64,000 bases of DNA, taken from assembly GCF_965363235.1 (NCBI RefSeq), contig NC_134845.1, positions 68,105,261-68,169,260 of the forward strand, written 5' to 3'. A model generated the notes under the pieces. It ran no database searches. It saw nothing but the letters and a program-made list of their open reading frames with translations, and was not told the origin of the DNA. The DNA is from Mytilus galloprovincialis (taxonomy: Eukaryota > Mollusca > Bivalvia > Mytilida > Mytilidae). The stretch's first letter is position 1. Every line of letters starts with the position of its first letter. The position numbers and the translations under genes are program-made. Shown piece by piece: positions 27,202 through 62,649 of this stretch.

Positions 27202-27434
27202 TCATGTTTCTCTTGAAATCATCATTATTGATTTGTTTACGTGTCCAATATTATAAACCCAAAACATTCTTCTGTAAAGCTGATTAAGGTCAGCGTATTC
27301 ACACATACTGTACCACCAACCACCATGCACAAGGGCTGCACAGTTCCTTGAATCTGGATCATTATCAGAATCAAATGTTGAGAATCTTTTTCCGGCCGCT
27401 TTTCCCTGACTTCCTACATTTATCAGGCTATCCC
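27202..27434 (-). CDS. FReD exon 4 (C-terminal, with calcium-site loop) and stop
   Basis: Acceptor TTTTTCAG; phase 1 in; TGA at 27202-27204. It encodes GDSLINVGSQGKAAGKRF, then STFDSDNDPDSRNCA (the DxDND loop binds calcium in FReDs), then ALVHGGWWYSMCEYADLN (the WW...C.....LN signature), and ends FWVYNIGHVNKSIMMISRET. The two cysteines expected in this part are present. The end is close to the usual family length. Confidence 0.93.
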
Positions 27435-29183
27435 CTGAAAAACCACAAATGATAGTTAAGGAATGACTGTAATAATTCTATGAAGAAATAACAAAAACAA
27501 TGTGGTCCACATTGAATAATGCGTGTAGCGGATATATTAGCAGTGTGAAACACATTTGTATGTCATTCCAAATAGTGGAGTGGCATATCGGGAAAAGTAC
27601 CTTATTTAAGGCGTTTAGTGGACCCAAATATCTCACGGCTGAAAATTCACATGAATAAAGGCAACATGAAAACTTTATACTTTCATTTTAGCCCTGTCGT
27701 AGGGATTTTTGCGGTGCTGTGTTTTGTAAAATCGCGTTAAAGTGTGATTTTCTGATTTTTTTCTTTTCCATTTTCAAACACAGGAACGCCTATTATAAAT
27801 TCCCGAATGAAGATATCTTAAACAAATTCGTATCAGATGAAAAAGTGATGTATCAGGTTTTTTTTCCATCAAATTTTAATATATGAACATATGAATTGAG
27901 TGAATTGGACGATTTCAAATGTATGTAACATTTTTTTTACTCTTACCGTCTGTCAAAGTATATTACTTTTCTTATTTATATATCATCAATAGTTAATTTT
28001 CACAAAAATAGTGGAACAACCAATACTTATAAAGTTTGGATATATAAAATTTGATAGAACATATAAATCAACTTTTACAAGCATGACAAGCATTTTATAA
28101 AACTTATCGTATAGCAGTCTTACTACTTAATTTTCACCTCAATAAGTAATGTAACGTTCCCCTTTCCTATTTTCTCCTGTCATATGAAATGCAATGAATT
28201 TAATATGCTCTTTCAAAACTATTGATTTAAAAAAGAATATGTATTTATATCAATAGTTTTGGCTTTGTGCTTGAATAAAAAGGCTAATTTTAAACCACAT
28301 TGGAACACATCCGAAAAATTCCGGAACATTATTGTAAGTGTTAACTCCATTAAATAAGAACAAGTAAAGTAGCTTAGCCTTAGATCGTGTTATTAAGCCT
28401 TTACATGTCCAAGAAGATTTTATTATCATGCATTTGAATTAGTGAAACAAAAACATGTGTGTGACGATGAATCAACTTTCGTTATAACACGCTTAATGGC
28501 ATTTCAATGACTGGTATAAAATCTCTATTCTGGAGAAAAAATCAGACAACAAGCTAAGCAATCCATACATGTCGAGTCATTTGAGCGTGCCGATATTGTT
28601 TCAAATGACGCAAATTATCATGCAGTGCATCCAGTGGTGAGTTACTCTTCATAAATAACTTAAAGGAAAAGCCGCTTCAACATTCAGCATGCACTGTTAA
28701 CAACTTGATGAAATTAAAAATTAATTTGCTTCTGATGCTTCAAATTAATCGGGGCATGACGTTGCTTTTCAAATACTAATAGAAAGTCTACATGACGAAA
28801 TGCTTGCGAAAGAAAGACAAATTATGTTCGTTGTCGTATAGTTTGCCAGTTACATTTGTTTACAGATATTACAGATATTACATTTTACAAATTTGAAAAG
28901 CTGTTTTGAAATTTCAAATTATTTCTATCTTTACAATGTATTCCAACCTCTCTGATAAATATTTTGACTGGTTAGAAGTTGATAATTATTTTCAAATGAA
29001 TAATGATTACAATGCATTATCATTTAATACTAAACGGAAATGTATACTTTAGCTGAGTGTGTGATGTTCCTTTTTGAAAAACCAGTACACCCTTGATCAG
29101 ATAGATGGTATTGGTATTGTCCAAAATCTTTATGTAAAATGGTACAACAGTTATTGAGATTTGGCTAATGACTTCTTTAAAAC
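27435..29183. other. Intron of the FReD gene, no feature seen
   Basis: A+T-rich; no recognisable element or exon. Confidence 0.5.
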
Positions 29184-29517
29184 AATAAAAATAAAAATGT
29201 GGTATGATTGCCAATTAGACAAATCTCCAGAAATTACACATACATTTACAATTATAGATCACAGTACGGCCTTTAACAAGAAGCAAAGCCCTTATCGCAT
29301 AGTCAGCAATAAAGAGACCGAATTTACAAATGTAAAACAATTCAAACGAAATCAAAACGGCCTAATGAATGTACAAAATTATAAACGAATAAAAAAATGT
29401 AACAGCAACAAATAACAGGCTCCTGACTTGGGACAGCCACATACAGAATGTGACGAGGTTAAACATGTCAGCGGGCGCCAAACCCGCCCCTTATATCGGA
29501 CATTGGTGTATATAAAA
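29184..29517 (+). repeat. Mussel SINE/MITE-like repeat A, forward copy
   Basis: Starts AAAAATGTGGTATGATTGCC, continues through GATCACAGTACGGCCTTTAA and CAGGCTCCTGACTTGGGACA, and ends near CCCGCCCCTTATATCGG. The 84-residue frame inside is repeat-derived. Confidence 0.8.
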
Positions 29518-29518
29518 G

Positions 29519-29650
29519 AAGATGTGGTATGATTGCCAATTAATGGAACAACTCTTTATAAGAGACCAAATGACACAGATATGTACAACTATAGATTACC
29601 GCACGACGTTCAACAATGAGCAAATCCCATACCACAGTCAGCTATTAAAG
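29519..29650 (+). repeat. Mussel repeat A, second partial copy directly adjacent
   Basis: AAGATGTGGTATGATTGCCA restarts immediately after the first copy, in the same orientation, and stops near CAGCTATTAAAGGCG. Confidence 0.8.
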
Positions 29651-30390
29651 GCGTCAAAGGGACAATCAGGTTTATTTCAAATGGTGGTAGATCCAAATTG
29701 TTCTTCAAGTCATTGAATGCAGATCAATTAGAGATTGTAAGAAATTTCTTTGTGCACCTGAAAATAAACATGGGTTGATAAGATTTGTTTGTACGTTGTA
29801 ATTGTGCAATATCGCACTACAATGATTTTGATTTGCAAGAACATGATGAAATATTTCTAGCGAGATCTTTTCAAAATCTATAGACTGTGATGCAGTTTTA
29901 TTTAGGATATGTAAGGGACTGAAGAGGCAGATATACGAATTATTATGTGCCTCTTTTTTCCAATAAACAAAAATTGAAAAGTTATTCCAGGGGTTGCTTC
30001 ATATTAAAATCATGACAGTTACGTCGTATTTCTAATAAGGTCGTCTCTTAGATGTCAAACATGATGAATTGTGATTTTAGACTGGAGGCGTATCTTCAAC
30101 CAAGACAGTGTTTACCTATTCACCATATGCACTTTGTTAAAAGTTATTGGACCCCCTGATGTCTGGCACACTTACAGCAGCTCGCGCTCTAACAGGATTC
30201 GACACGTCTTCTCTTAGCGAAATTGAAAAAGGAAGACGATACAAGGGGTCGGGAAAAAATGCCTGTATCAAAATTTGTCAATCAAGCTGGTTTTCATATT
30301 GACAAATATGTTGCAGTGAAAATCGATTCACCGGGAATTAAAATGACCCTAGAAGAAATGGTCAATCTGTACATGGTGAACTGAATAAAC
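29640..30390 (+). pseudogene. Possible decayed mobile-element ORF
   Basis: Two open stretches look coding-like: FISNGGRSKLFFKSLNADQL followed by EIVRNFFVHLKI (29650-29780), and ARALTGFDTSSLSEIEKG (about 30178-30230). ALTG.DT motifs occur in uncharacterised ORFs of animal transposons as I remember them. I cannot identify the family, and stops separate the stretches. Confidence 0.3.
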
Positions 30391-30605
30391 TTATAAGTAT
30401 TGTCGGCGCCATACAATGACATCCACTTTTTTTCTAGTATTCCATCACTTCATCAAATCGATGTGCATCTTGATGTCTAGTGTTATTGTATTATGAGTAT
30501 ACATAGACAGCAACTTTTGAGGCATAATACTACTGTGAATCGTGTTTGTTTGTAGTTCACATACATATATCGGGCTTTCATGTCTGTTGTATATTCCATT
30601 GTTCA

Positions 30606-30842
30606 TAGATATAAGAAGATATAGTATGAGTTCCAATGAGATAACTCTCAATTCAGGTCCTAATTTGTCAAAGTTCACCATTATAGGTCAAAGTACGGTC
30701 TTCAAAACGGAGCCTTGGCTCACACCTGAACAGTTAGAGCTCCAAAAATGACTAATATAAAACCATTGCAACGGTTTAATCTATATAAAAAACTATAAAC
30801 ATTTATGAACCACATCAACAAACGACAACCATGTATGTCGGA
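30606..30842 (+). repeat. Mussel SINE/MITE-like repeat B, forward copy
   Basis: ATAAGAAGATATAGTATGAG, CCAATGAGATAACTCTC, GGAGCCTTGGCTCACACCTG and ACAAACGACAACCATG match the reverse complements of copies at 10.7 and 21.2 kb. Confidence 0.75.
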
Positions 30843-33600: not shown

Positions 33601-33601
33601 C

Positions 33602-33766
33602 CGGCTGTTCCACTGTAGCCATTTACTGTGAGTAAATATTTGTTAGCCTCATTTCCAATGCTAAAAGTTGAGTAATCTGCATACTTGTTGGTACCATTAG
33701 CCTTCCATAGCTGGAAGCGGATTTTGTGTCGACCATTAGACGAAATAAGATGAATATATTCATTTC
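33602..33766 (-). CDS. FReD exon 3
   Basis: 165 bp, phase 1 in and out, acceptor CAATAG and donor GCCG|GTAATA. It encodes GNEYIHLISSNGRHKIRFQL, then NKYADYSTFSIGNEANKYLL and TVNGYSGTAG. This is the canonical G...IH.LT..G.Y.LR......Y..F.IG.E...Y.L.V.GYSG.AGD segment. Confidence 0.93.
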
Positions 33767-34476: not shown

Positions 34477-34573
34477 CTAGCCAATATTCGCCATTTACGT
34501 TACCAAATCCACTTTTATAGCTTGTCCAATTTCTAGTAAAGTTAACTGATCCGTTAAACCTTCTTTGAATTAC
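34477..34573 (-). CDS. FReD exon 2
   Basis: 97 bp, phase 0 in and 1 out, acceptor GTCCTAG and donor CTAG|GTAAGT. It encodes [20 protein letters not shown], then [13 protein letters not shown]. This is the classic FReD W.VIQRR.DGSV.F.R.W..Y..GFG...GE.WLG motif. N-F-T and N-W-T are potential N-glycosylation sites. Confidence 0.95.
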
Positions 34574-38180: not shown

Positions 38181-38303
38181 GTGAAACAGAACAGCTTACT
38201 CCATTCCATAATTCAGTATTATTGCAAGTACATGTATTATCATTACATATAAGTGATGCTTTACAATCATTGTGAGAAAGACAAAAATGACCTAAAGTGT
38301 TTC
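38181..38303 (-). CDS. EB-like module exon (last before FReD)
   Basis: 123 bp, phase 1-1, acceptor TTTGACAG and donor CAC|GTAAGT. It encodes GHFCLSHNDCKASLICNDNT, then CTCNNTELWNGVSC: six cysteines in the order C-x5-C-x5-C-x4-C-x-C-x8-C. It joins in frame to the FReD. Confidence 0.9.
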
Positions 38304-39898: not shown

Positions 39899-39899
39899 T

Positions 39900-41980
39900 T
39901 CTTTCTGTTACAATAAACGACTTAAATCAGCAAAGATCAATGAAAACAAAATCTGATATCAATTTAAAAACACTTATAAATACTTGGATGATAAATTGTC
40001 TCTCAATAATGATGGCTCAAGTTTGAAGTTTACTACTCAAATTTACAATAAACGAGATGGTTTTAAGTTTCTTTTTGTTAATTATTGATTTAGATGATGA
40101 CGTCTTACTGTTGACGTCTTATGGTGTTTACAAAATCCAATTTTCACTGTATTTTATGATGTTTTTCATTTTTAACAGAAGAATTCTCTGTATTACTGAA
40201 AAATAATTACAATAATATTTTCAATATCACAAACTTGTCGAAACATTTACTTAAAGTGGTACGGAATACCTATGAAAATATAACTCTTAGTATGTTTCAT
40301 TGTAACGTTATAAAATCTCATGCAATATGCAAGAAGGATTATAATGTTTACACTGTTGCTACGAGCAGATGCACACTTATTGTCATTCATTTAATATTTT
40401 AACTGATTAATAATTACATAATAGTCTTTGATAAATGAATCATTGAAGAGACAAAATCGGTAAGTTTCAAAGTAAAAGAAATTAACAAAAGAAAACCAGG
40501 AGGTCAGAAAGTTTTTAAAGTGGCAAATGAAGGGAAACAGAAAAGACATGATAACTTTTTTTTCTTTTTTTTTTGGCCTAGGCATTACATACAATATAAT
40601 AAAGTACAAAAAGTAAGAAGCTGACAATAAAAATTACAACCAAATAAAAATTAATAAACCAAGGACAAACCTGCTTCTTTTCGTTCCAAATTGATTTAAA
40701 TCAAACTAGATTTGACTCAACGATACGTAAAAACTGTATTTTAGATTTAAATTGTAGGTATGAGTAAAATTGTAGGGTACATGTATGAGGTAATAACGAC
40801 ATCATCATGTCGTTATAACAACATTCCTATATCGTTATTATGACATTGCTTTATCATTATAACGAAAACCTTACCGTTGTTTCTTTGTGAGCATTGCAAC
40901 ACAGGAGAAACAACATGTTCATCTTTATTTTAAAAACCGCATATCAGAATTGAATCAATCATATATGATATGTGTATTCTGTGGTGAAAAAATTGTAGGA
41001 TGTTATTTTTGAACTCTCAGTTTTCACCCTTTATCCTGGCAGGTGTAGAAACTATATGATAAACAAGTGTCTTCGCCGTCCGCATTTTTTTTTGGGAAAA
41101 GTAAAATCTAAATGAAAAACCATGGTTGAAACTGAAACTAAACATGTAAGATAAAAATAGAATATGTTTTTTGCTTTATCAAATTATATTTTCGTACGGA
41201 ATGTGTGTGTCTCTCCGAAATAGTGAATGCAATGTTGTAAAGTTTTTCTTCTCAAGTCTCAATACAAGGTTATGACTGATTTTATATATTAAGGGTGCCA
41301 AACAAATATATACCTGTAACTGCAGTTTGATATTTGGTGGTATGAGAGATGAAGTGAGTAAAGACTTTAACATTTTGATAGCATTTTAAAGACTAGTTTG
41401 CTTTAATCTAAACACCAGTTGCATCTAAATGTCATAACTTTTGCAAAAATACCATAAAATTCTATCTTTAACGATCTTGATTATAAATAAGGATTTAGCA
41501 CGGTCATCTCTTTTCTATCATCTAGTTCAGACTTTCAGGAGCCGTGGTTCTTTACACCAATGGATCCGTAGTTTATTTTGAATCGTACATATTTTTTTCT
41601 TATCTGCAGACCAACAAAATTGAAAATCTTAATCATGTAAAATATCAGCAGATTTTAAAGATTTTCCCTATGTATCCTTTATGCATTTTTGGTGTCTCAT
41701 GCTTTGAATTTCATCAGCTCATATCTCAAAAACAACAACAATTACTCTGTGCTTCATTTTATTATCTCGTGTACTTTTACAATCAGAATCCGCATGTGAA
41801 ATTTAACAACATTCTGTGGCATAGTTACGTACATAATTTTCTCTTCAATAGACACTCGGTCTTTTGAGTTGTTTTTTTAAGATAACTGCATGTACTTTAT
41901 GTAATTTGTTGATATGTCAACATGTTTGTCTATATTCTTGTATGGTCGATAAGAGCATGTGTAATTTGTATTTGTTAATT
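39900..41980. other. Intron of the FReD gene, mostly featureless
   Basis: Contains a small cluster of CGTTATAA/TCGTTATTA words at 40785-40865 and A/T tracts. The 107-residue frame at 41544-41867 has no splice context or motif and is not called. Confidence 0.5.
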
Positions 41981-43299
41981 AAATATTGACTCTAAATAAA
42001 ACTTAGAACTCAATTGAATTGAATTAACAAGCCACATTTTCAGGCCTTGTTCAAAAGACAAGTCATTATCTGTTCAATTGTTTCCTGCCAAAAATACAGT
42101 GATCGTCCTTGGTCCAAGTTCAAGGTCACACAAAGATTAAAGTTGCAAAGGGGTACACCACCTCATGATACTATATCCACATGCCAAAGATGTAATGTCT
42201 TAGACTAGTAACAAAGACGACGAAGTAATTGTGTTTCTTGCAAAAAAACATTTAGTTGACCTTGAGGTAAAATTTTAAGGTCATATGAAGGTCATCATGA
42301 TACAAGACGCATAACATCATGATGATACATCAACATGCCAAAAAGCTGAGGCCTAGATCAAAGAAAAAAGTTATGAACATTATTAACTTTCAAAATTGCC
42401 TTTGCCCTTATTTATTGAGCCAATTGCAGGGTGGAGGCCACATTTTAAACTTTAATAGAAAAAAATCTGGTTGGTATTTTTTTTTTAATTTTGAAATAAC
42501 AACAGACTGATATATAAGCATGATAAGTAGGAATGGCAAGTTTTTGGAATAAATTAAACGACACATTTTTTTTTTCAGAAAAAAATGATTTTAAATACCC
42601 ACCAATCATATTCAATTTTGGGGGCTGACTCTAATACCCCCTTTTTTAGTTCAGACACAAATCAAAATCTAGAATGAAAGAAAAACCTACAAGTAAAGTT
42701 TATCGGTGAACTAAAATTTGCCTCAGTTATCAACATAAACTATATATGCTATTGTCAATTTAGGATTAAATAGATAAAAATAACATATCTACCCAAATTT
42801 GGCCGATATTAGCATATAAAAGATGCCATTTCGAGTTGCCAAATTTGTTAAACCTATTGTTCAAATCTTTTGAATTTTTCAAAAGATGATTGATTAGCTA
42901 GGCCTTATTTATCAAGAAAAATTAAACGACAAATATTTGTTGGGGTATAGTGTTGGGTACCCCCGTAATGTTATCATCGGTATTCATTAATATAAATCAA
43001 CGTGCAGACATCTTTTACAATTAGGTATTTCACATCTCATCTGTTATGGTAATATATATTCTATAGAAAGACACTAATGTCGTCATTCACCTCAAATGTC
43101 AACCAAACCTTTAAACAGACTTATTCAGAAGTCACATAGAAACGAGACTGTTGTCAAGTCATTAAAGATTGCATTTTTTAGAATAAATAATGATTCCCAT
43201 TTATATCTTTGTGTCCTAAAAAAACACATATAATCTAAAACCAGTTATTGGCATGATTCGGGTTATATTTGTCTAGTATATTTTATGAGGTCAGAAGCT

Positions 43300-43665
43300 G
43301 ATATGATAGTTACTGCAAGTAGTTCTTTGTCAATTTATGTTCATCGTTGTCTTTTTGTTCTTAGTTTCCACTGTTTCCTTAAGCTTATTTGATATCGGGC
43401 TTGGACTTTTTTCAACTGAGTATTACTTTGCGCATTGCTGTTTGTGGTTTTTTATTCCACATTAACTAGAGGTATAGGGGATGGATTGAGATTTCACAAA
43501 ATATGTTTGACTCCGCCATATTTTTGGCGCCTGTCTTAGTCAAAAATATCTGGCCTTTGTTACTCTTGTCTTGTTTTTTTCTAATTTTGGTTCATTTATA
43601 TTTTTTGGAGTTACGTGTGACGTCCATTTTCTCAGAACAAGTTTACATTTTTTCAAGGGACAAGC
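43300..43665 (+). repeat. Diverged 3' UTR of the 8.1-9.5 kb retroelement family, copy 1
   Basis: GATGGATTGAGATTTCAC, TTTGACTCCGCCATATTTTT, GCGCCTGTCTTAGTCAAAA and TGGCCTTTGTTACTCTTGTC are the reverse-complement counterparts of the segment at 8380-8480. Ends near the EB exon at 43731. Repeated at 47905-48270 by the segmental duplication. Confidence 0.6.
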
Positions 43666-43730
43666 TAAAAGAAAGAAATGAGTTAACTTGTTCAATAATT
43701 TGGAACTGCAAATAACGCCTTGTTTCTTAC

Positions 43731-43856
43731 TATGACGGCATATGCGTCCATTCCAAAACCAATCATCTCCTTCATTGCATACACATTTATCATCCACACA
43801 CTGTAAAGTATCCTTGCATTCTTTTGTCTCTGTACAATTTAATTTTGCTTCTTTTC
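43731..43856 (-). CDS. EB-like module exon d (duplication copy 1)
   Basis: 126 bp, phase 1-1, acceptor TTTTGAAG and donor ATA|GTAAGA. It encodes GKEAKLNCTETKECKDTLQC, then VDDKCVCNEGDDWFWNGRIC: six cysteines with the W.G..C ending. Confidence 0.88.
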
Positions 43857-44320
43857 CTTCAAAATATGGTACCAAAAAATCAAATAACAGTCTTCAATAA
43901 ACACTGTCGAATACTGAGTGTATGATGGATATAATAAAATGGAAAGATGATAAGTTGAATTATACATGTCTAAGTTGATTACAAGATGTAGAGAAAACAA
44001 AACAAAAAGTAGGTTTGGTAGAACTGAAAATGAGACAACTTTCCATCAGAGACCAAATAAACTTAAATCCATTATAATTCATTTCAAATTAATTATTTTC
44101 TTATATTAAATTCGAATAAAATTTGAAATTGTTCAATAAATATTTGTTAACAACTATGAATTCCTACCATTTGCTAAAAAACTATCTACAGATGAATCAC
44201 AGAGAATGTTAAGTCTGTTATTAGGGAACATCAACAAACATGGCGGTAAGGATATATATTCCTAAAGAAAACATTAAACAAAAGAAACAAAAATAAGAGG
44301 ATTTCTATCAAATTTCTTAC

Positions 44321-44440
44321 TCGCACTACATTTGTTTCCCATCCAATAATCTATCCTATCGCATTTACAGGCTCCATGAATACAAAACAATGTTTCTATA
44401 CACTCATCTGACATCGTACAAGTTGAGTTATGCGTCTTTC
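44321..44440 (-). CDS. EB-like module exon c (duplication copy 1)
   Basis: 120 bp, phase 1-1, acceptor GTTGCCAG and donor GCGA|GTAAGA. It encodes KTHNSTCTMSDECIETLFCI, then HGACKCDRIDYWMGNKC, with six cysteines. Confidence 0.88.
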
Positions 44441-44590
44441 CTGGCAACGAAATGAATAAATGTTCTATATATAGATACTAGTAAACAAAATCCCATCACA
44501 TAATTCAATTTCTTCAAAATATGTAGATGCAAATACTTAAGAAAAATAGGACGAGATATATTGATATATGACGGGATTTGTGTTCTCTGA

Positions 44591-45860
44591 TTGACTTCAC
44601 TCACTAACCAAGCTGTATTGTTCAGTAAATCTATATTATGTATAATGCAGTTTTCTTATTTAAATGTTATCGAAATAATTGAACCGATGCACTATATACT
44701 ATATAGACTAATTGAGTTCTGTGTAAGGGTTATTTATGATAATCACAAATATATAATACATATGTTATCCAAATTTAATATGGGTAATATGGACTACGAC
44801 ATATTCACGACAATTTATGAAAACACTGTTATTCCTGTACTTGATTATGCATCCGGGGTATGGGGAGCAAAGCAATATGACAATTTCGAACGCTCATATT
44901 ATAGAGCTATGAGAACTTTTCTTGGTGTCGGCAAAACAACACCAATTCCAGCGATATTAGCAGACATGGGATGGCATCCTGTTTTTATTCACAACCAGTG
45001 TAACGTTGTCCGCTTATGGCGTCGTCTTATGAACATGCCTGGTCACAGAATTGGCCAAAAAGTGTTTTTTTGGGATCGTGAAATGTCCAGACGTTACCGA
45101 AACACGTGGTTTAACAGCTTGTAGACAGATGCAATCTTTCAAACATAACTGACAACGACACGCTATCTCAACAAGATTCATACTAGACTCTTTTAAAAGT
45201 AAACTTGTAGCAGACTTCAAAGACAAGCTGTTTAACGAAATAAACAATATGCCAAAGTTGAGGACCTATAAACATTTAAAAACCGAATTTTATCTCCAGC
45301 CGTACGTACAAAAGCATTTAACAAGGACACAAAGATATGCAATCGCCAGATTTCGCTGTGGTACTTTCCCACTAGAGGTCAAACGAGGACGATATAGGGA
45401 CATTCCCATCGAACAACGATTATGTAAACTGTGCAATTCTGGATCTATTGAAGATGAGCAACACTTCATCTTATACTGTGATCGTTACTCAGTTTTGAGA
45501 AATAAACTATTTACTGCAATATCACCAGATCCTACTTATCCTCTATGCATAAATGAACTTCCTCCAAATGTTGCCTTAAATGAACTGTTATCTAACAACA
45601 TCAAATGTATAGCGAACTTTATCTTGGACTGTGATCGTATCAAAAGAGAAATTATCGAACTATTTTACTTCAACTGTTGAATTTTCTGATAATTTAGACA
45701 TTCTTCCAAAACTATGTATTATCTATTTTTCAAAATTTGAGCTTTTTAAAATTTGTCGGTGCATCGTAAGCCTATCTGGCTGACTGTAATGTAACATTGT
45801 ATTAATATGTATTTATTGTATATATACAGGTTGCACTATAATAAATCATTCATTCATATA
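44591..45860 (+). mobile_element. 5'-truncated LINE 3' end, copy in duplication 1
   Basis: Encodes the C-terminal part of a LINE ORF2: MGNMDYDIFTTIYENTVIPV, LDYASGVWGAKQYD, YRAMRTFLGVGKTTPIPAIL, ADMGWHPVFIHNQCNVVRLW, a frame break, then the zinc-knuckle-like LCKLCNSGSIEDEQHFILYC (45249-45680). The 3' UTR ends AATAAATCATTCATTCAT at about 45860. It is antisense to the host gene, in the intron between EB exons. Confidence 0.85.
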
Positions 45861-48335
45861 ATTTCAACAAATAATATTTGAACCAATGATATTATATTCA
45901 GTGCGAGATTTTTACAACCTTATTACTTTCGAGATACTTACCGGAGGTAACAGAATCCATACATTGATAAACATGCACTTATTAACAGCTGGGTCCAGTA
46001 CGTGACAAATATTTAAGTTAATAAAGCTATGATCATGTTTTTTTCAATGGGTTCGAATTTGTTTACCTAACTGTATCTTAAAAGTGGTTAAATGATTTGT
46101 TGTATTAAATTTGTTCTTTGAGAATAAGTTATTACTGTTTACCTTCCAGTGCAATATGTTTCATCATAATTTTCCTTACTCACTTGTGCTATGTGATGGT
46201 ATAAGCCCTAACGAGAGTTTTCGTTATCAAGTTGTATACGGAAAAAAAGTCGGCGAATTGGTGTACGTGAAGACAATAACTAAATTTCAGTGCATGTATT
46301 AATATTTTCAACATATAGATGATTTTTCCCCCAAGAATGTTCACATACACTTGCTGTATGGTAAAATTTTGCCATTCAAGCAACATTTTTGTTCAATTTG
46401 AAGTTGTATATGACTATGACTTTAAATATTATTCGAGGTATCAAAGAATGATTCCGTATTTGTTTCCCGGTTGCTTTTGAAATCATTGGCAATGAATCGA
46501 AATGTTTGTATCTTTTAATGACCATATTTCGGTTGTTATCCTTTATTTGTTTTTCTTCATACACAATATTCAATATCCGGGGTCTAAATATTGACTCTAA
46601 ATAAAACTTAGAACTCAATTGAATTGAATTAACAAGCCACATTTTCAGGCCTTGTTCAAAAGACAAGTCATTATCTGTTCAATTGTTTCCTGCCAAAAAT
46701 ACAGTGATCGTCCTTGGTCCAAGTTCAAGGTCACACAAAGATTAAAGTTGCAAAGGGGTACACCACCTCATGATACTATATCCACATGCCAAAGATGTAA
46801 TGTCTTAGACTAGTAACAAAGACGACGAAGTAATTGTGTTTCTTGCAAAAAAACATTTAGTTGACCTTGAGGTAAAATTTTAAGGTCATATGAAGGTCAT
46901 CATGATACAAGACGCATAACATCATGATGATACATCAACATGCCAAAAAGCTGAGGCCTAGATCAAAGAAAAAAGTTATGAACATTATTAACTTTCAAAA
47001 TTGCCTTTGCCCTTATTTATTGAGCCAATTGCAGGGTGGAGGCCACATTTTAAACTTTAATAGAAAAAAATCTGGTTGGTATTTTTTTTTTAATTTTGAA
47101 ATAACAACAGACTGATATATAAGCATGATAAGTAGGAATGGCAAGTTTTTGGAATAAATTAAACGACACATTTTTTTTTTCAGAAAAAAATGATTTTAAA
47201 TACCCACCAATCATATTCAATTTTGGGGGCTGACTCTAATACCCCCTTTTTTAGTTCAGACACAAATCAAAATCTAGAATGAAAGAAAAACCTACAAGTA
47301 AAGTTTATCGGTGAACTAAAATTTGCCTCAGTTATCAACATAAACTATATATGCTATTGTCAATTTAGGATTAAATAGATAAAAATAACATATCTACCCA
47401 AATTTGGCCGATATTAGCATATAAAAGATGCCATTTCGAGTTGCCAAATTTGTTAAACCTATTGTTCAAATCTTTTGAATTTTTCAAAAGATGATTGATT
47501 AGCTAGGCCTTATTTATCAAGAAAAATTAAACGACAAATATTTGTTGGGGTATAGTGTTGGGTACCCCCGTAATGTTATCATCGGTATTCATTAATATAA
47601 ATCAACGTGCAGACATCTTTTACAATTAGGTATTTCACATCTCATCTGTTATGGTAATATATATTCTATAGAAAGACACTAATGTCGTCATTCACCTCAA
47701 ATGTCAACCAAACCTTTAAACAGACTTATTCAGAAGTCACATAGAAACGAGACTGTTGTCAAGTCATTAAAGATTGCATTTTTTAGAATAAATAATGATT
47801 CCCATTTATATCTTTGTGTCCTAAAAAAACACATATAATCTAAAACCAGTTATTGGCATGATTCGGGTTATATTTGTCTAGTATATTTTATGAGGTCAGA
47901 AGCTGATATGATAGTTACTGCAAGTAGTTCTTTGTCAATTTATGTTCATCGTTGTCTTTTTGTTCTTAGTTTCCACTGTTTCCTTAAGCTTATTTGATAT
48001 CGGGCTTGGACTTTTTTCAACTGAGTATTACTTTGCGCATTGCTGTTTGTGGTTTTTTATTCCACATTAACTAGAGGTATAGGGGATGGATTGAGATTTC
48101 ACAAAATATGTTTGACTCCGCCATATTTTTGGCGCCTGTCTTAGTCAAAAATATCTGGCCTTTGTTACTCTTGTCTTGTTTTTTTCTAATTTTGGTTCAT
48201 TTATATTTTTTGGAGTTACGTGTGACGTCCATTTTCTCAGAACAAGTTTACATTTTTTCAAGGGACAAGCTAAAAGAAAGAAATGAGTTAACTTGTTCAA
48301 TAATTTGGAACTGCAAATAACGCCTTGTTTCTTAC

Positions 48336-48461
48336 TATGACGGCATATGCGTCCATTCCAAAACCAATCATCTCCTTCATTGCATACACATTTATCATCC
48401 ACACACTGTAAAGTATCCTTGCATTCTTTTGTCTCTGTACAATTTAATTTTGCTTCTTTTC
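48336..48461 (-). CDS. EB-like module exon d (duplication copy 2)
   Basis: Same sequence as 43731-43856, shifted by 4,605 bp, with intact splice sites. If the duplication is real the transcript contains this module twice. Confidence 0.85.
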
Positions 48462-48925
48462 CTTCAAAATATGGTACCAAAAAATCAAATAACAGTCTTC
48501 AATAAACACTGTCGAATACTGAGTGTATGATGGATATAATAAAATGGAAAGATGATAAGTTGAATTATACATGTCTAAGTTGATTACAAGATGTAGAGAA
48601 AACAAAACAAAAAGTAGGTTTGGTAGAACTGAAAATGAGACAACTTTCCATCAGAGACCAAATAAACTTAAATCCATTATAATTCATTTCAAATTAATTA
48701 TTTTCTTATATTAAATTCGAATAAAATTTGAAATTGTTCAATAAATATTTGTTAACAACTATGAATTCCTACCATTTGCTAAAAAACTATCTACAGATGA
48801 ATCACAGAGAATGTTAAGTCTGTTATTAGGGAACATCAACAAACATGGCGGTAAGGATATATATTCCTAAAGAAAACATTAAACAAAAGAAACAAAAATA
48901 AGAGGATTTCTATCAAATTTCTTAC

Positions 48926-49045
48926 TCGCACTACATTTGTTTCCCATCCAATAATCTATCCTATCGCATTTACAGGCTCCATGAATACAAAACAATGTTT
49001 CTATACACTCATCTGACATCGTACAAGTTGAGTTATGCGTCTTTC
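48926..49045 (-). CDS. EB-like module exon c (duplication copy 2)
   Basis: Same sequence as 44321-44440, shifted by 4,605 bp, splice sites intact. Confidence 0.85.
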
Positions 49046-49195
49046 CTGGCAACGAAATGAATAAATGTTCTATATATAGATACTAGTAAACAAAATCCCA
49101 TCACATAATTCAATTTCTTCAAAATATGTAGATGCAAATACTTAAGAAAAATAGGACGAGATATATTGATATATGACGGGATTTGTGTTCTCTGA

Positions 49196-50465
49196 TTGAC
49201 TTCACTCACTAACCAAGCTGTATTGTTCAGTAAATCTATATTATGTATAATGCAGTTTTCTTATTTAAATGTTATCGAAATAATTGAACCGATGCACTAT
49301 ATACTATATAGACTAATTGAGTTCTGTGTAAGGGTTATTTATGATAATCACAAATATATAATACATATGTTATCCAAATTTAATATGGGTAATATGGACT
49401 ACGACATATTCACGACAATTTATGAAAACACTGTTATTCCTGTACTTGATTATGCATCCGGGGTATGGGGAGCAAAGCAATATGACAATTTCGAACGCTC
49501 ATATTATAGAGCTATGAGAACTTTTCTTGGTGTCGGCAAAACAACACCAATTCCAGCGATATTAGCAGACATGGGATGGCATCCTGTTTTTATTCACAAC
49601 CAGTGTAACGTTGTCCGCTTATGGCGTCGTCTTATGAACATGCCTGGTCACAGAATTGGCCAAAAAGTGTTTTTTTGGGATCGTGAAATGTCCAGACGTT
49701 ACCGAAACACGTGGTTTAACAGCTTGTAGACAGATGCAATCTTTCAAACATAACTGACAACGACACGCTATCTCAACAAGATTCATACTAGACTCTTTTA
49801 AAAGTAAACTTGTAGCAGACTTCAAAGACAAGCTGTTTAACGAAATAAACAATATGCCAAAGTTGAGGACCTATAAACATTTAAAAACCGAATTTTATCT
49901 CCAGCCGTACGTACAAAAGCATTTAACAAGGACACAAAGATATGCAATCGCCAGATTTCGCTGTGGTACTTTCCCACTAGAGGTCAAACGAGGACGATAT
50001 AGGGACATTCCCATCGAACAACGATTATGTAAACTGTGCAATTCTGGATCTATTGAAGATGAGCAACACTTCATCTTATACTGTGATCGTTACTCAGTTT
50101 TGAGAAATAAACTATTTACTGCAATATCACCAGATCCTACTTATCCTCTATGCATAAATGAACTTCCTCCAAATGTTGCCTTAAATGAACTGTTATCTAA
50201 CAACATCAAATGTATAGCGAACTTTATCTTGGACTGTGATCGTATCAAAAGAGAAATTATCGAACTATTTTACTTCAACTGTTGAATTTTCTGATAATTT
50301 AGACATTCTTCCAAAACTATGTATTATCTATTTTTCAAAATTTGAGCTTTTTAAAATTTGTCGGTGCATCGTAAGCCTATCTGGCTGACTGTAATGTAAC
50401 ATTGTATTAATATGTATTTATTGTATATATACAGGTTGCACTATAATAAATCATTCATTCATATA
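49196..50465 (+). mobile_element. 5'-truncated LINE 3' end, copy in duplication 2
   Basis: Same as 44591-45860, carried along by the segmental duplication and not an independent insertion: its flanks are identical too. Confidence 0.85.
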
Positions 50466-51610
50466 ATTTCAACAAATAATATTTGAACCAATGATATTAT
50501 ATTCAGTGCGAGATTTTTACAACCTTATTACTTTCGAGATACTTACCGGAGGTAACAGAATCCATACATTGATAAACATGCACTTATTAACAGCTGGGTC
50601 CAGTACGTGACAAATATTTAAGTTAATAAAGCTATGATCATGTTTTTTTCAATGGGTTCGAATTTGTTTACCTAACTGTATCTTAAAAGTGGTTAAATGA
50701 TTTGTTGTATTAAATTTGTTCTTTGAGAATAAGTTATTACTGTTTACCTTCCAGTGCAATATGTTTCATCATAATTTTCCTTACTCACTTGTGCTATGTG
50801 ATGGTATAAGCCCTAACGAGAGTTTTCGTTATCAAGTTGTATACGGAAAAAAAGTCGGCGAATTGGTGTACGTGAAGACAATAACTAAATTTCAGTGCAT
50901 GTATTAATATTTTCAACATATAGATGATTTTTCCCCCAAGAATGTTCACATACACTTGCTGTATGGTAAAATTTTGCCATTCAAGCAACATTTTTGTTCA
51001 ATTTGAAGTTGTATATGACTATGACTTTAAATATTATTCGAGGTATCAAAGAATGATTCCGTATTTGTTTCCCGGTTGCTTTTGAAATCATTGGCAATGA
51101 ATCGAAATGTTTGTATCTTTTAATGACCATATTTCGGTTGTTATCCTTTATTTGTTTTTCTTCATATACAATATTCAATATCCGGGGTCTTTTTTTGGTG
51201 TTTTTCCTTCAAAAGTGCAGACAGATTAACGAATCGATGAATAAGCAAACGTTCAACTAAGTAAACTCTTCCTTTTACGATAGTAGCATTTTCTTCTAAT
51301 TTACACCATTTTTCTTAACAACTTTTTATATTATAATTTGTTTGTTTAAAAATGTGTTCTTAAACAGTTTGAAGAAGTTTTTAATGTTTTGTTCGACGTT
51401 GTTTTGTTTTCTCATTTCTAACAGTCATCGTAACTGGACATATATTTTAACATTAACATACCGAATGCAAAAAAGAATACATGTCATCATTGTAAAGTTA
51501 TCAACAAACAATTAATTGCGTCTAATTTAAATCATCCTACAGATATCAATATCGGTAAAAAGCAATCATCATTTGATATGAATATATCAACAGATTACAG
51601 AAAACCTTAC

Positions 51611-53260: not shown

Positions 53261-53265
53261 TTCAT

Positions 53266-56270: not shown

Positions 56271-56353
56271 ATAGCAATACAAAAATACCAATGTTGAAAC
56301 TTATTGAACGTATGACAGCTGCGGATTAATTAATTAATGTTAAAACCCTTTCA

Positions 56354-57016: not shown

Positions 57017-58240
57017 ATGTCCGATAGTTCAGAGGACGAGTTTGAGGGATTTTCGGTGGGAGAAGTAGAACTTCCTGGTCAACGGTATGAAATGCACTGA
57101 CCTCAAAATGACATAGGTGATGATTTCATGATCACTCCTGAAGTGATGTTGAAAGAGAAAGGGTCAGCGAACTTTCAGACGAAAATAATGACAGCTGGCA
57201 GATGTAAATAATGCGCTTGATGCCCAACAACAATGACTGATGGCACCAAGAATTTTATATATTGAAATTTGAAAGAGGTCTTCCTCGTTTATCCCAACCA
57301 AGAAGTATTATACTGGTCCACAAAACATATGAGGCCCAAAGAAGGATATTTTTTCTAAATGTTTCTATCTGACAACCAAATGATTGATAGTTATAATAAG
57401 ATAAAATAAGACATTTTTATTCTTATCAAAGGGCCCATGAAGAGCAAAGTAAAAAAAATTGCAATGATTTGATAATTGACATAAAACCGGTAATGTTTTT
57501 ATAAATCATATATAAATGTGAATATAATCATCTGAATTCTAAGATGTTAAACCGCAGCCAGATTAGAGCCACACACACATATTAAAGTAAAAAAGCCATA
57601 ACAATTATATTTTTATATTAACAGGCAATTATTCTCATATTCAATATATATGTACATTGACGGAAAAAATAAAATATATTTGTATGCGCTTTATTAGAAA
57701 CAGGACAACAATTTTATATTTTCTGACAATGTACATATATTGTTTTTATCCTGAAATTTAATCCCAACACTTGAAGGTTTTATCATGTTTATAGTTATTA
57801 AAAATATAAGTCATGGTCTCTAATTTTTCAAAGAAATGGACGAATTATGCAGATAATAAGGTATCTACACTTCACTGATACGAACCAGCGAGGTGAGCAA
57901 ACATGGGAGGCTAATTATGATGTATCTTACAAACTCAGATAAATTAAAGACCCCCTTAACAGACAAAAATGAGAGACCAACATGTCCCCAAACGATAGGT
58001 GACGATTCATGATACCTTACAAAGGGAGGGATGCATTCAAGCAATTCATGCCTCCTAAAACAAAGAAATGGGCCATCAAACTTTAGGTATTGGCAGCGTC
58101 TGACACTGTGTATGTAATATTGTGAAATCTACCACGTCAAGACAGATCAAACACATGTAGGTTAACTCTGCTTTCCAGCAGACTTTGGGAAACAAGATAA
58201 GGTGTCACATATGCTGGGCTAGGGAAGCTATTAAAGGTAC
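57017..58240 (+). pseudogene. piggyBac-type transposase relic
   Basis: An apparent N-terminus at 57017, MSDSSEDEFEGFSVGEVEL, has the acidic start common in piggyBac-derived proteins. Near 58010-58090 the sequence reads MIPYKGRDAFKQFMPPKTKK, then WAIKL.VLA, matching the family's DE.MI.FKGR...KQYMP.KP.KWGIK.W.L.DS. Upstream of that, IKDPLNRQK.ETNMSPN fits the segment leading to the catalytic Asp. Most of the ORF between is eroded and much is missing, so it is inactive. Ends with TTAA were not located. Confidence 0.75.
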
Positions 58241-58660
58241 ACAGGAAAAAAGGTTTCAAATATGGTTGTGTTGAATGTACTTTGTTACAATTTTTAAGTT
58301 GAGAGGATATTATATATTACATAATTTGTTGAAAAGGTTTTCACAGATAAGTTGTTGAAATGATATTCATAATTTATATTTGTTGTTACAGTTGACATTT
58401 TCATTTATTAATTTTTATCATTTTTTTTTAATAAGGAACATTAAACTATCTTCATCATTGAACAATACAAAACCAAAGACAGTGGAAATTCTAGCATCCC
58501 ATGGACACTTATGAAGATAATTTTTTAAATAAATCATAGACTTTTTCAAAGTAATTTAGTTCATGATTGTCTTTCAAGATTTAATTATGTCTCACTTAAT
58601 TTATCAAGACATTATTAAAGTGTTAAACGTACATGGATTAGTGTGTCAGGTCATCTTACA

Positions 58661-59626
58661 TCTATAATACTAAAATTACGAGATCCAATTTGTCAGCCGT
58701 CATCACGTAAAAACGACGAATCAAAGAATTCAACATTATATATAACTAAAATAGTACAAAGGTGTAGATTAAAAATTACACCACTCCAGGTCCTTTTGTT
58801 TTCCACGTAATTAATATTGCCAATAATTAAGAAGTTCCGGGTCGAGTCCGATACCGATACCATGCAATAGTATATTCACCTGATTACGAGGTCCAATTTG
58901 TTAGCCGTCATCACGTAAAAACGACGAATCAAAGAATTCAACATTATATATAACTAAAATAGTACAAAGGTGTAGATTAAAAATTACACCACTCCAGGCC
59001 CTTTTGTTTTCCACGTAATTAATATTGCCAATAATTAAGAAGTTCCAGGTCGAGTCCGATACCGATACCATGCAATAGTATATTCACCTGTTACCTATTA
59101 CCTGATCTGTACGTTTCGCATCTGACAGGCGCACCAACAAACGGTGTATTCAGGATTAATATGCTATATACACGGGTCATAATCACAGGGTTGACACTAC
59201 TAAATTGTCAAATTGTTACCTATTGTAGTATTTTAATCAGTAAGACTTTCTAAGATAACAATACGAATATTAAAAATCTGGACTAAAAACAAGGCGTATA
59301 GGTACATTTTTCAATTTGTAAGCTGGCATGACGTAAAACAGCGAATCAAAGAATTCAACTTTATTTATAACTAATATAGGACAATGCTGTTGATTAAAAA
59401 ATACTCCATTCCAGGACCTTTTGTTTTCCAAATAATTAATATTACCAATAATTGATAAGTTCCAGTTCGACGGGTTCAAACAGAAAGATTTGAAAGCAGA
59501 GAAAACTGAGTATCTTATAATCGGCATGACTTTATCAGATGACAATACTAATACTAAAATAAGGCTTGCGCATAGTTATATACTTTAATTCAGTCACGGA
59601 CCCGCGATATCACGGGTGTGTTCTAG
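58661..59626 (+). mobile_element. Non-autonomous Helitron, 966 bp
   Basis: 5' end TCTATAATACTAAAATTACG after an A (58660); 3' end CTAG (59623-59626) before a T (59627); subterminal hairpin ACCCG...CGGGT at 59600-59617, five bases before CTAG. Those are the hallmarks of Helitrons: 5'-TC, 3'-CTRR with hairpin, insertion between A and T. No Rep/helicase ORF. It contains an internal 208-bp tandem duplication and a diverged third copy of the same motif at about 59310-59470. Confidence 0.85.
58675..59090 (+). repeat. 208-bp tandem duplication inside the Helitron
   Basis: Units 58675-58882 and 58883-59090 are nearly identical (ATTACGAG.TCCAATTTGT ... GTATATTCACCTG). A diverged relative with AGCGAATCAAAGAATTCAAC lies at 59310-59470. 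Confidence 0.9.
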
Positions 59627-61513
59627 TTTAATTAATATTTCCATGCAGTCAGTGGTTTGATACAAAAAAAAAAAACAGAAAAAAATATATTTGCACATTA
59701 AAAAAAAGAACATATTAATCTCAAAAGTATTGATTTTACTAGAAAAAAATATCATTAGATATCTCCATTAAAATATTAAAAAATCCACAAAAGATCCCAA
59801 TAGTCAATTTATATCTATATCAATGCAATAATACAAAGAAAACATTGGACTAAGAAAGACAACTCCAACTTATCCAGGGACACAACTTCCTATCTGGTGA
59901 CTATATTGTACTGATAAAAAAATGGCTGCCGCTGAATTTGACATACCATTTTCATTCGTGTTTATTCATACTAATAAGCTAGAATTTTGACTCTGGAGTT
60001 ATTTTTTCCATAAAACTTTGATAAAGGAACACTCGAAATTGATAATTACCATTTGTATTGTTAATTTAGAAGATGGGAGGCAAAAAAATAAGCTGGTCAC
60101 AAAAAAAAATAGATTTCGCAAATCAAACGTCATTTTCTTTCCACAAAAGGTTGAAAAATATCAAAAGTAGGTATTGTCATGTAATTTTATTTAAATTGCA
60201 ACACTCCTTTCATACTTAAGTGTAATAATATCGAGTTTGAAACCAATTTGATGAGAAACAACAAAGATACAAACGTTTTTTCTAAAACGTAATTTTTTCC
60301 CCATTTACACGTCAAATTAATTCAGGCCAGGCAAACTGCGCCTGGAAATTTGATCAGGTCACACAACGTCGCGGAAAAAACAATTCAGTAAGGAAAGTGT
60401 TTTTACTGTTCATTCTACAGTTTTAATTGATTTTTTTCTCTCTAAAAATAGCCGTTTGAAACGGATACTTATTTCATGTATATATATAGTTAATAATGCT
60501 AGAGAAACCCGGTAAATACACATTCACTGGAATTTATATTTTGTGTATTAAATTGTGTTCTTACTGCAATTTTATCAGCGTTTAAGGGAAAGTCATACAG
60601 TATTTCATATGCTCTTATTGGTGCTCGCTCCTCTAATTTAAGATGACAAGCTTTTCAAAAGATTGTTCAAAGTTGAAAAATCTAGAAAATCTAAAAGTAG
60701 AAGAAATGACAGGTCTGCCTCCTTGTTTTGTTGGTTTTTTTTAGATATAATCAACTGAATGAATCTAGATTTTTCTTGAATTTAACATTGGCACCTTTGC
60801 CTTTTCAAAAACATACGAGAAAGTGTATTTATAAAATTTTCAAAGTTTTGATTTTAAACTATATGTTTATCTTACAGAATTGTCTAAAGAAAAGTACGTG
60901 TCAGCTGGCAAAATTTATAATTGCACTTCATGAAGAAAATAACACGATTCTGAATATCTCACCAAAAGCCAAAAATAAGAGAAGCTTTGGCTTGTTACTC
61001 TCGACAATTGACTATTTTTAGGATTTTCATATTGGTAATTCTTCGATTTGTTGTTTAGAATTTGCTGGTTGATCTATATCATATAGATGTCTTGTCTTCA
61101 ACGAACTGGTTTTAGTAGTATTGTTTACAAAAATATATCATCTATATTGTAAATACCCCGTCAAAAAACTTACGGTTGAACTTTTACACCCGAGGTCGTA
61201 GTATTGTTGATTCAGAGCTGTCCGATATTTTTGTGTGAAACACACCTATTCAAGATAAATGAAATATAATTTTAAACAGAATAATGCAAACAACAGCAAT
61301 CTATACGCGAAATCAAATGGCTGTGTCAAATATTAGGTACATATGCTTTATATCAGGCTTTTTAAAATTTACGAAACATTTAAATTCTGCACAAAATAAA
61401 ATCAGTAACAATAAACAACATTTAAATATTATTTTTAAAATGTAATAATAATCTGTTCTGTCAAGCCATTTACATTTACAGTCTACGCAGTTTTGACTGA
61501 TGGATTAAAATAC
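59627..61513. other. Intron, no feature seen
   Basis: A+T-rich; the 97-residue frame at 60728-61021 has no motif and is not called. Confidence 0.5.
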
Positions 61514-61596
61514 CTCATTTTTGGTGCATGCGATGGTGTTGTTGCATTGGTCTGTACTCATGACCCCACTACAGGACAAACAACTCAGACTTGGAA
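61514..61596 (-). CDS. Ly6/three-finger-like exon, first half of a domain
   Basis: 83 bp, phase 1 in and 0 out, acceptor TTTCATAG and donor GAG|GTATTT. It encodes PSLSCLSCSGVMSTDQCNNT, then IACTKNE: the C..C.....PE.C...V.C...E opening seen in molluscan Ly6-like segments. It continues into 55749-55620. Confidence 0.75.
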
Positions 61597-62142
61597 CTAT
61601 GAAAAAAAATGATAATTAGATATTTTACATATCACTAACAATTGTCTAACATAATCCTTTAAATGGAGGAATACCTCATAACAACTGTCACAAGCTAAGG
61701 GAAAAGTGGATAAATTCACAAAAAAAACATACTTCTTAATTATAAGGTTGCTTTCCCTTTTTTTTTTTTGCATAACAAAGGAATGACAATGTAATATACA
61801 AATCATGATATATCGTCTGTTAATTGCATTCATTTCTGGCATTGTTGTCAAAATTTTAAAACATAAAGCCTTTACTAATATTAGTATGTCATCCAAACAC
61901 TATCCAAGTTTTATGTTGATCGGTGTGTGTATACTTTTCCTCATGACAAGTGGTATTATTTTTCTTCATAATTTATTGTAGAAGTAGCTGAACGCAATTC
62001 ATGAAAACTATAAATTTGAGACTCATGAACAAGGAAAGCAATGATCATATGAGTCTGCCAGACATTACTATGACGTTAGATTTTCGTCGCGCTTGTGTTA
62101 TTTTGTTTTTACCGTAAAATCATTCAAAAAATTTGCTTGTAG

Positions 62143-62400
62143 ATATGTAAAAAGTAAAATCACAAAAATACTGAACTCCGAGGAAAATTCAAAACTGAAA
62201 GTCCAAAATCATATGGCGAATTCAAAAGTTCAAACACATGAAACGCATGAAAAACAACTGGAATACTCCTGACTTGGTGCAGGCATTTTCTTATGTAAAA
62301 AAATGGTTGATTAAATTTGTTTTATAGCTAGTTAAACCTCTCATTTGTATTACAGTTGAATCACATTCATTATATTGACAACGATGAGCGACATTGTGCT
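62143..62400 (+). repeat. Interspersed repeat, AAAGTAAAATCACAAAAATAC family, copy 2
   Basis: Matches 9528-9790 in order: AAGTAAAATCACAAAAATAC, GACTTGGTGCAGGCATTTTC, AATGGTTGATTAAAT, CCTCTCATTTG. Confidence 0.75.
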
Positions 62401-62519
62401 ATAATCCTAATCACTAAAAACCATACACACATGTAACAAAGAAGCACACAATTGCATTCAGACTAAGCATATAAGTTAAAATTAAAGAAAAGATGTAATT
62501 GATTGTATAATTTTCCGAC

Positions 62520-62649
62520 CTTTGTAGTTGTCGTTGCATGTTAAGACGGAGTTACAAACGTTGTCCTGGCAACATTGATGACACACTACATGGCCATGAT
62601 CGACCATGAGTTTTCCAAATATAACACCTGTACTATCTTTACGGCAAAG
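62520..62649 (-). CDS. Ly6/three-finger-like exon of a preceding domain (5'-most exon visible)
   Basis: 130 bp, phase 0 in and 1 out: same size and phases as the exon at 55620. It encodes LCRKDSTGVIFGKLMVDHGH, then VVCHQCCQDNVCNSVLTC. It has the same C..CC...VCN ending. The donor (G|GTCGGA) is weak. Its first-half exon should lie upstream but I do not see it before the window ends. Confidence 0.7.

What the first reader, a model, noticed from the sequence alone, without database searches (positions are those of the whole stretch)
27202..62649. Ly6-like + multi-EB + fibrinogen-domain gene: an unusual lectin architecture
Minus-strand exons with consistent phases encode at least one and a half Ly6/three-finger-like domains, five distinct EB/EGF-like modules (seven with the duplication) and a full FReD with all expected cysteines and the DxDND loop. 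Known molluscan FREPs pair FReD with immunoglobulin domains; I do not recall this three-part order as a described family. The exon-per-module, phase 1-1 design would let the EB array expand freely.
Basis: partly seen in the sequence, partly recalled or inferred. Interest (0 to 1): 0.85.

Follow-up and report, generated by a model that had tools for sequence, protein, structure and literature searches.

The report
Mussel Ly6-like EB fibrinogen lectin genes
The window holds one intact-looking mussel gene for a secreted protein that strings two Ly6-like cysteine-rich domains, a row of EGF-type EB modules and a fibrinogen-type lectin head together, and it belongs to a wider family of such genes in the same genome that I did not find described.

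Summary
Fifteen minus-strand exons, GT-AG and phase-consistent, give two Ly6-like domains (one exon lies 1 kb outside the window), five distinct EB modules (seven with a 4,605-bp tandem duplication) and a FReD ending in a stop plus AATAAA. They are one gene: three other loci, on C8 and C11, carry the LU-LU-EB-FReD exons in the same order and phases, with different EB numbers, and LU, EB and FReD parts are all under purifying selection.

Caveats: "Ly6" is only partly met. Pfam UPAR_LY6 stays below its cut-off (best E 0.086), PDB profile searches gave nothing significant, and the cysteine spacing fits only partly. EGF-like + fibrinogen proteins (snail FReM) are already described. In G1, P2 and P3 a FReD loop is 8-14 residues shorter than in seven other mussel FReDs. 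Best reading: a secreted, oligomeric recognition lectin. Transcription and function are untested.

The parts
62520..62649 (-). LU1b: second half of Ly6-like domain 1, phase 0-1. Its partner LU1a (phase 1-0) is at 65000-65082 in window numbering (C8:68170260-68170342), outside the window; a signal-peptide-like exon (phase 1-1) is at 66935-66982, also outside.
   Evidence: searches (borders, phase; LU1a; signal-like exon), homologues in P2, P3, P4
61514..61596 (-). LU2a: first half of Ly6-like domain 2 (LSCLSC...), phase 1-0
   Evidence: homologues in P2, P3, P4
55620..55749 (-). LU2b: second half of Ly6-like domain 2 (CC...CN), phase 0-1
   Evidence: homologues in P2, P3, P4
54150..54272 (-). 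EB1 module exon, phase 1-1
   Evidence: Pfam EB; homologues in P2, P3, P4
51611..51730 (-). EB2 module exon, phase 1-1
   Evidence: Pfam EB; homologues in P2, P3, P4
48926..49045 (-). EB3 module exon, phase 1-1 (upstream copy of the duplicated pair)
   Evidence: homologues in P2, P3, P4
48336..48461 (-). EB4 module exon, phase 1-1 (upstream copy); weak polypyrimidine tract at its acceptor
   Evidence: no counterpart found in P2 or P3
44321..44440 (-). EB5 = duplicate of EB3, phase 1-1
43731..43856 (-). EB6 = duplicate of EB4, phase 1-1
41980..51189 (.). Tandem duplication, two units of 4,605 bp (41980-46584 and 46585-51189), 1 mismatch; each unit carries EB3+EB4 and repeat-like plus-strand ORFs
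38181..38303 (-). EB7 module exon, phase 1-1
   Evidence: homologues in P2, P3
37550..37668 (-). F1: FReD exon 1, phase 1-0
   Evidence: Fibrinogen_C
34477..34573 (-). F2: FReD exon 2, phase 0-1
33602..33766 (-). F3: FReD exon 3, phase 1-1
27202..27434 (-). F4: FReD last exon with DSDND loop, shortened C-terminal loop and TGA stop
27185..27190 (-). AATAAA, 11 nt after the stop; the same motif stands 9 and 10 nt after the stop in P2 and P3

Best explanation
One gene encodes a secreted protein: signal peptide, two Ly6-like domains, an array of five to seven EB modules, and a C-terminal FReD. Shown here by sequence: exon order, open frame, conserved splice phases, purifying selection in all three parts, and recurrence of the arrangement. 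Inferred: the FReD is the ligand-binding head with a calcium site (DSDND kept) but an altered pocket, because the loop after LNxxY is cut to 2 residues; the EB array is a spacer whose length changes by duplication of phase 1-1 exons; the Ly6-like tip makes protein contacts, and the odd eleventh cysteine of LU1 (kept in G1, P3 and P4) could link chains into dimers. The most likely role is a soluble recognition or agglutinating lectin of mussel innate immunity, diversified by gene duplication.
For: 15 phase-consistent exons. Same order and phases in P3 (12 exons), P2 (11 exons found; LU1a not in the stretch read) and P4 (LU1a to F3; F4 not in the stretch read). dN/dS G1 against P3: LU 0.20, EB 0.24, FReD 0.44. 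EB7 to F1 is only about 0.5-0.7 kb in G1, P2 and P3. 27 of 45 further Ly6-like loci have a FReD hit 3' within 35 kb on the same strand, random mean 0.30, maximum 4 in 2,000. FReD matches solved lectin and growth-factor FReDs: angiopoietin-1 7.8e-41, MFAP4 6.7e-40, ficolin-3 2.6e-38, FIBCD1 9.6e-38, techylectin-5A 1.4e-29. Cys counts: LU1 11 in three of three, LU2 10 in four of four, each counted EB 6. Bivalve single-domain FReDs are described as expanded, inducible and bacteria-agglutinating (passage of PMC8878817).
Against: No transcript, expression, binding or structure data. The start-codon exon was not found and the signal-like exon rests on G1-P3 similarity alone. Ly6 profile scores are below cut-off. 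FReD proteins also act in adhesion and growth control (angiopoietin and tenascin are among the hits), so an immune role is not shown. The shortened loop could mean that glycan binding is lost. FReD Cys counts differ (G1 4, P2 6, P3 5).
Confidence: 0.6

Rival explanations
1. The exons belong to two or three neighbouring genes (a Ly6-like/EB gene and a FReD gene) that the reader joined.
For: No transcript evidence; the gene spans about 38 kb; FReD exons and Ly6-like exons also occur without one another: 18 of 45 Ly6-like loci had no listed FReD in reach, and one FReD locus (L055) showed no LU or EB exon in the 9 kb read.
Against: Phases match at every junction; the order is kept at P2, P3 and P4 on two contigs; EB7 and F1 are 0.5-0.7 kb apart in three genes with no room for a clear promoter and terminal exon; F1 starts in phase 1 without an ATG.
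Confidence: 0.04
2. The N-terminal domains are not Ly6/uPAR three-finger domains but another cysteine-rich fold that shares the CxxC and CCx4-5CN motifs.
For: UPAR_LY6 best E 0.086, below cut-off; PDB profile of six domains: first hit adenylate kinase 5 at 0.59, LYPD6 at 1.6; profile of eight domains: no hit at E 10; Dickkopf_N scored 0.041 and Toxin_TOLIP 0.014 for single members. Between Cys5 and the CC pair there are 23 residues and one Cys; CD59 numbering in PMC4839075 (passages) has 36 residues and two. There is an extra Cys after CN, and the internal intron lies just before Cys5 rather than in loop 2.
Against: First five Cys spacings, the LxCxxC start (LU2), CCx4CN (LU1), Asn after that Cys, and two exons per domain flanked by phase-1 introns agree with the LU definition (passages of PMC6600238 and PMC4839075). 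Five of six members hit UPAR_LY6 weakly.
Confidence: 0.4
3. The protein is an extracellular matrix or signalling molecule (tenascin- or angiopoietin-like) rather than an immune lectin.
For: Best PDB match is angiopoietin-1; tenascins also join EGF-like modules to a FReD (passages of PMC11401434); the pocket-side loop is shortened.
Against: No FN3 domain was hit in Pfam; the gene family is multi-copy with recent tandem relatives (P2 and P3 are 90-99% identical in protein), more usual for immune lectins; FReD dN/dS is the highest of the three parts.
Confidence: 0.3
4. The EB3-EB4 duplication is an assembly artefact, so the real gene has five EB modules.
For: Two adjacent units of 4,605 bp differ at one base; P2 and P3 have four EB exons.
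Against: One mismatch exists; EB number also differs in P4, and two nearly identical EB exons (one residue apart) stand in L057, so exon duplication does occur in the family.
Confidence: 0.4

Closest known systems
FReM (EGF-like + fibrinogen domain proteins of Biomphalaria)
   Same: N-terminal region, EGF-like region in the middle, FReD at the C-terminus; distinct from Ig-bearing FREPs (passages of PMC7588048, PMC10903818, PMC10075465)
   Different: No Ly6-like domain is named for FReM in the passages I saw; 1 FReM in B. glabrata BB02 and 3 in B. pfeifferi, against several colinear genes here; the original FReM paper (PMC2585491) is not held, so its N-terminal region could not be compared
FREP (IgSF + fibrinogen) of heterobranch snails
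   Same: Secreted, multi-domain, FReD at the C-terminus, clustered multigene family
   Different: No Ig domain: Pfam reported only Fibrinogen_C, EB and a sub-cut-off EGF_TEN on the whole protein
Single-domain bivalve FReDs (sFReD, mussel FREPs)
   Same: Same kind of FReD; large expansion in mussels
   Different: Extra Ly6-like and EB modules; G1, P2 and P3 have a shortened loop. Described as signal peptide, FReD and often coiled coil (passage of PMC8878817)
Ly6/uPAR (LU) domain proteins
   Same: CxxC start, CCx4-5CN, two exons per domain, phase-1 flanks
   Different: Profile below cut-off, fewer residues and one Cys less between Cys5 and CC, extra Cys after CN, fused to other modules. A review calls LU probably not a bona fide mobile module (passage of PMC6600238)
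Tenascins
   Same: EGF-type modules followed by a C-terminal FReD
   Different: FN3 repeats are part of tenascins (passages of PMC11401434) and none was hit here

Membership tests
FReD (Fibrinogen_C) proteins | Fibrinogen_C domain over Pfam cut-off | tested here: met
   2e-51, 175.4 bits against 22
FReD (Fibrinogen_C) proteins | Two disulfide pairs (4 Cys) and DxDND calcium loop | tested here: met
   4 Cys in G1, DSDND
FReD (Fibrinogen_C) proteins | Full-length loop between LNxxY and IxW near the ligand pocket (its role in the pocket is recalled, from no call) | tested here: not met
   2 residues in G1, P2, P3; 10-16 in seven other mussel FReDs; 6 in the EB-bearing C11:38.27 gene and 3 in C8:70.28
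EB module | Pfam EB over cut-off, six Cys | tested here: met
   1.9e-14, 53.9 bits against 24.3, five stretches; 6 Cys each
Ly6/uPAR (LU) domain | Profile match over cut-off | tested here: not met
   Best 0.086 of six members; PDB LYPD6 E 1.6; none with eight members; PF00021 over the whole genome: 10 weak hits, none over cut-off and none at this locus
Ly6/uPAR (LU) domain | LxCxxC start and CCxxxxCN end | tested here: met
   LU2 LSCLSC, LU1 CCQDNVCN; LU1 has I for L, LU2 five residues between CC and CN
Ly6/uPAR (LU) domain | Ten cysteines in canonical spacing | tested here: not met
   10 or 11 Cys, but one Cys and 23 residues between Cys5 and CC (two and 36 in CD59 numbering, PMC4839075) and an extra Cys after CN
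Ly6/uPAR (LU) domain | Two exons per domain flanked by phase-1 introns, internal intron at loop 2 | tested here: inconclusive
   Two exons and phase-1 flanks met; internal phase-0 intron lies just before Cys5 (definition: passages of PMC6600238)
Ly6/uPAR (LU) domain | Three-finger fold | not testable with these tools
FREP (IgSF + FReD) | One or two Ig domains | tested here: not met
   No Ig family in Pfam up to E 10 on the spliced protein
FReM (EGF-like + FReD) | EGF-like region followed by FReD, no Ig | tested here: met
   EB modules then Fibrinogen_C; EB is an EGF-type module, not the EGF profile itself
FReM (EGF-like + FReD) | Homology of the N-terminal region with snail FReM | not tested
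   Snail sequence not available; paper not held

The most novel reading that the evidence does not exclude
Mussels carry a large, unrecognised family of secreted Ly6-like - (EB)n - FReD proteins, probably 30 or more loci, in which a Ly6-type domain has become a true mobile module joined to a lectin head; standard annotation overlooks it because the Ly6-like domain falls below the Pfam cut-off, so many genes are filed as single-domain FReDs. The EB-bearing branch has changed its ligand loop and varies its stalk length by duplicating phase 1-1 EB exons.
Probability: 0.45. Interest if true: 0.7.

Novelty: new variant of a known kind. Interest (0 to 1): 0.55.

Why it matters
If true, part of the mussel FReD repertoire, described so far mainly as signal peptide plus FReD with or without coiled coil (passage of PMC8878817), is a multi-domain family with its own N-terminal module. 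That gives testable parts: ligand change by loop loss, chain linking by an odd cysteine, stalk length by EB exon copy number. It would also count against the view that the LU domain is not a mobile module (passage of PMC6600238), provided the fold is confirmed.

Tried and rejected
Separate genes: rejected on phase, order in three other loci and short EB7-F1 introns. Pseudogene: no stop or broken splice site in the 15 exons, purifying selection. A relative at C8:92.41 Mb does carry a stop in LU2b, and L057 has EB-like stretches with stops; these were only described.

Significant Ly6 assignment: tried with Pfam, NCBIfam, PDB profiles of six and eight domains and a genome-wide PF00021 search; none was significant. 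Adding two more domains made the PDB result worse, not better.

First coding exon: a scan for ATG exons ending in phase 1 and a translated comparison of upstream flanks (an earlier run with a wrong option returned nothing) gave no start exon, only the signal-like second exon.

Does every mussel FReD carry a Ly6-like exon? Not shown. I read one locus for this (L055, C5:56.10-56.11 Mb) and found only FReD exons in 9 kb.

Resemblance of window ORFs at 6.5-11.3 kb to HSPA12-type proteins is recalled only; Pfam gave nothing.
Full report
Setting. The window is C8:68105261-68169260 of a 1.385-Gb genome in 331 contigs. Fibrinogen_C (PF00147) gave 155 matches there, a lower bound because only the best candidates are scored.

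The gene. Reading the minus strand, 15 exons join with AG acceptors, GT donors and one open frame: LU1a 65082-65000 (in the fetched flank), LU1b 62649-62520, LU2a 61596-61514, LU2b 55749-55620, EB1 54272-54150, EB2 51730-51611, EB3 49045-48926, EB4 48461-48336, EB5 44440-44321, EB6 43856-43731, EB7 38303-38181, F1 37668-37550, F2 34573-34477, F3 33766-33602, F4 27434-27202. Both Ly6-like domains have an 83-nt exon (phase 1-0) and a 130-nt exon (phase 0-1); EB exons are 120-126 nt, phase 1-1. An AATAAA stands 11 nt after the stop, and 9 and 10 nt after it in P2 and P3. A 48-nt, phase 1-1 exon that reads like a signal-peptide core lies at 66982-66935 and has a counterpart in P3. The start-codon exon was not found.

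Is it chance? Strict exon signatures found the exons on the minus strand only and none in 20 dinucleotide shuffles.

One gene, not several. A protein search of the own genome showed colinear relatives, which were then read. P3 (C8:67521838-67533419) has LU1a, LU1b, LU2a, LU2b, EB1, EB2, EB3, EB7, F1-F4 within 12 kb. P2 (C8:68074582-68084639) has the same from LU1b on; a weak LU1a-like hit lies 18 kb further upstream at 68102615. P4 (C11:39044635-39066612) has LU1a to F3 with its own set of EB exons; F4 was outside the stretch fetched. Borders and phases agree at the P2 and P3 exons and at P4 except two poor EB-like stretches that I did not place. Nei-Gojobori dN/dS, G1 against P3: LU 0.20 (140 codons), EB 0.24 (157), FReD 0.44 (197); G1 against P2: 0.17, 0.27, 0.37; P2 against P3: 0.25, 0.37, 0.63 on few changes; against P4 synonymous sites are mostly saturated.

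A wider family. Ly6-like exons were sought with three queries and FReD exons with three. Leaving out the query genes, 45 Ly6-like loci remain; 27 have a FReD hit within 35 kb 3' on the same strand (21 within 10 kb), 11 have one 5' on the same strand (several lie in tandem clusters), 1 has one 3' and 1 has one 5' on the other strand. Random placement gives 0.30 on average and 4 at most in 2,000 trials; 18 of 45 show no FReD, which may reflect capped lists or genes without FReD. Of the 27, I read sequence at two: L056, with two Ly6-like domains (one with a stop) and FReD exons and no EB found, and part of L057, with EB and four FReD exons. L054 is a query gene and shows one Ly6-like domain, four FReD exons and no EB. 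The rest are search hits. L055, chosen as an ordinary FReD, showed no Ly6-like or EB exon in 9 kb.

What the domains are. FReD: Pfam 2e-51; PDB matches include angiopoietin-1 7.8e-41, ficolin-3 2.6e-38, FIBCD1 9.6e-38, tenascin-R 2.7e-34, techylectin-5A 1.4e-29. The DSDND loop is kept. Between LNxxY and the next IxW-type motif G1, P2 and P3 keep 2 residues, seven other mussel FReDs 10-16, the EB-bearing gene at C11:38.27 Mb 6, and C8:70.28 Mb 3. From recall, this loop supplies part of the acetyl-group pocket in known FReD lectins; no call shows it. EB: Pfam over cut-off; the PDB profile search gave only weak, short matches. Ly6-like: UPAR_LY6 is hit weakly by five of six domains, best 0.086, below cut-off; PDB profile of six domains gave adenylate kinase 5 at 0.59 and LYPD6 at 1.6, of eight domains nothing. 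Motifs and phase-1 flanks agree with the LU definition, spacing after Cys5 does not. I therefore say Ly6-like.

How it may work. Shown: gene structure, conservation, recurrence. Inferred: secretion, FReD as binding head, EB array as spacer, Ly6-like tip for protein contact, the odd cysteine of LU1 (11 Cys in G1, P3 and P4) as a chain link. An immune recognition lectin is the likeliest role, because such FReDs are expanded and bacteria-agglutinating in bivalves (passage of PMC8878817) and reported mussel FREPs promote phagocytosis (passage of PMC5877582), but an adhesion or signalling role is open.

The duplication. Two adjacent 4,605-bp units differ at one base. They may be an assembly artefact or a very recent event; EB number varies between relatives either way.

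Literature. Ten searches of open-licence PMC showed no paper joining Ly6 and fibrinogen domains in a mollusc; others (Ly6, fibrinogen-related, mollusc; fibrinogen, EB module, mollus) returned none. All papers cited were seen as passages, not in full. FReM (EGF-like + fibrinogen) is the nearest described kind. The two mussel FREP papers of 2011 were seen only as references, and the original FReM paper is not held, so an earlier description cannot be excluded.

Noticed in passing
window 947-4669 and 8930-9963: Same-strand DNA 98.8% and 94.7% identical to the region upstream of P3 (C8:67536284-67540000 and 67534511-67535552), so this end of the window is part of a larger segmental duplication.
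   Followed up: partly
window 44591-45680 and 49196-50285 (+): Repeat-like ORFs (177 and 175 aa) inside each unit of the tandem duplication; similar peptide at 1424-1603 on the minus strand. No Pfam match at 0.01.
   Followed up: partly
window 6513-11328 (-): ORFs of 207 and 148 aa at 6513-7136 and 10882-11328 that recall HSPA12-type proteins; not supported by Pfam.
   Followed up: partly
window 20574-20855 (-): Fragment with a sub-cut-off match to HTH_Tnp_Tc3_2 transposase (E 0.00048).
   Followed up: no
window 58675-59094: Two copies of a 208-bp unit, 97% matches, in the LU2a-LU2b intron.
   Followed up: no
C6:71402430-71407908 (+) and C12:5826356-5833151 (+): Ly6-like exons followed by EB-like exons with no listed FReD 3' on the same strand: perhaps LU-EB genes without FReD.
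   Followed up: no
L057 (C11:38272001-38280000): Two EB exons that differ by one residue, each near an EB-like stretch with a stop: another recent EB exon duplication.
   Followed up: no
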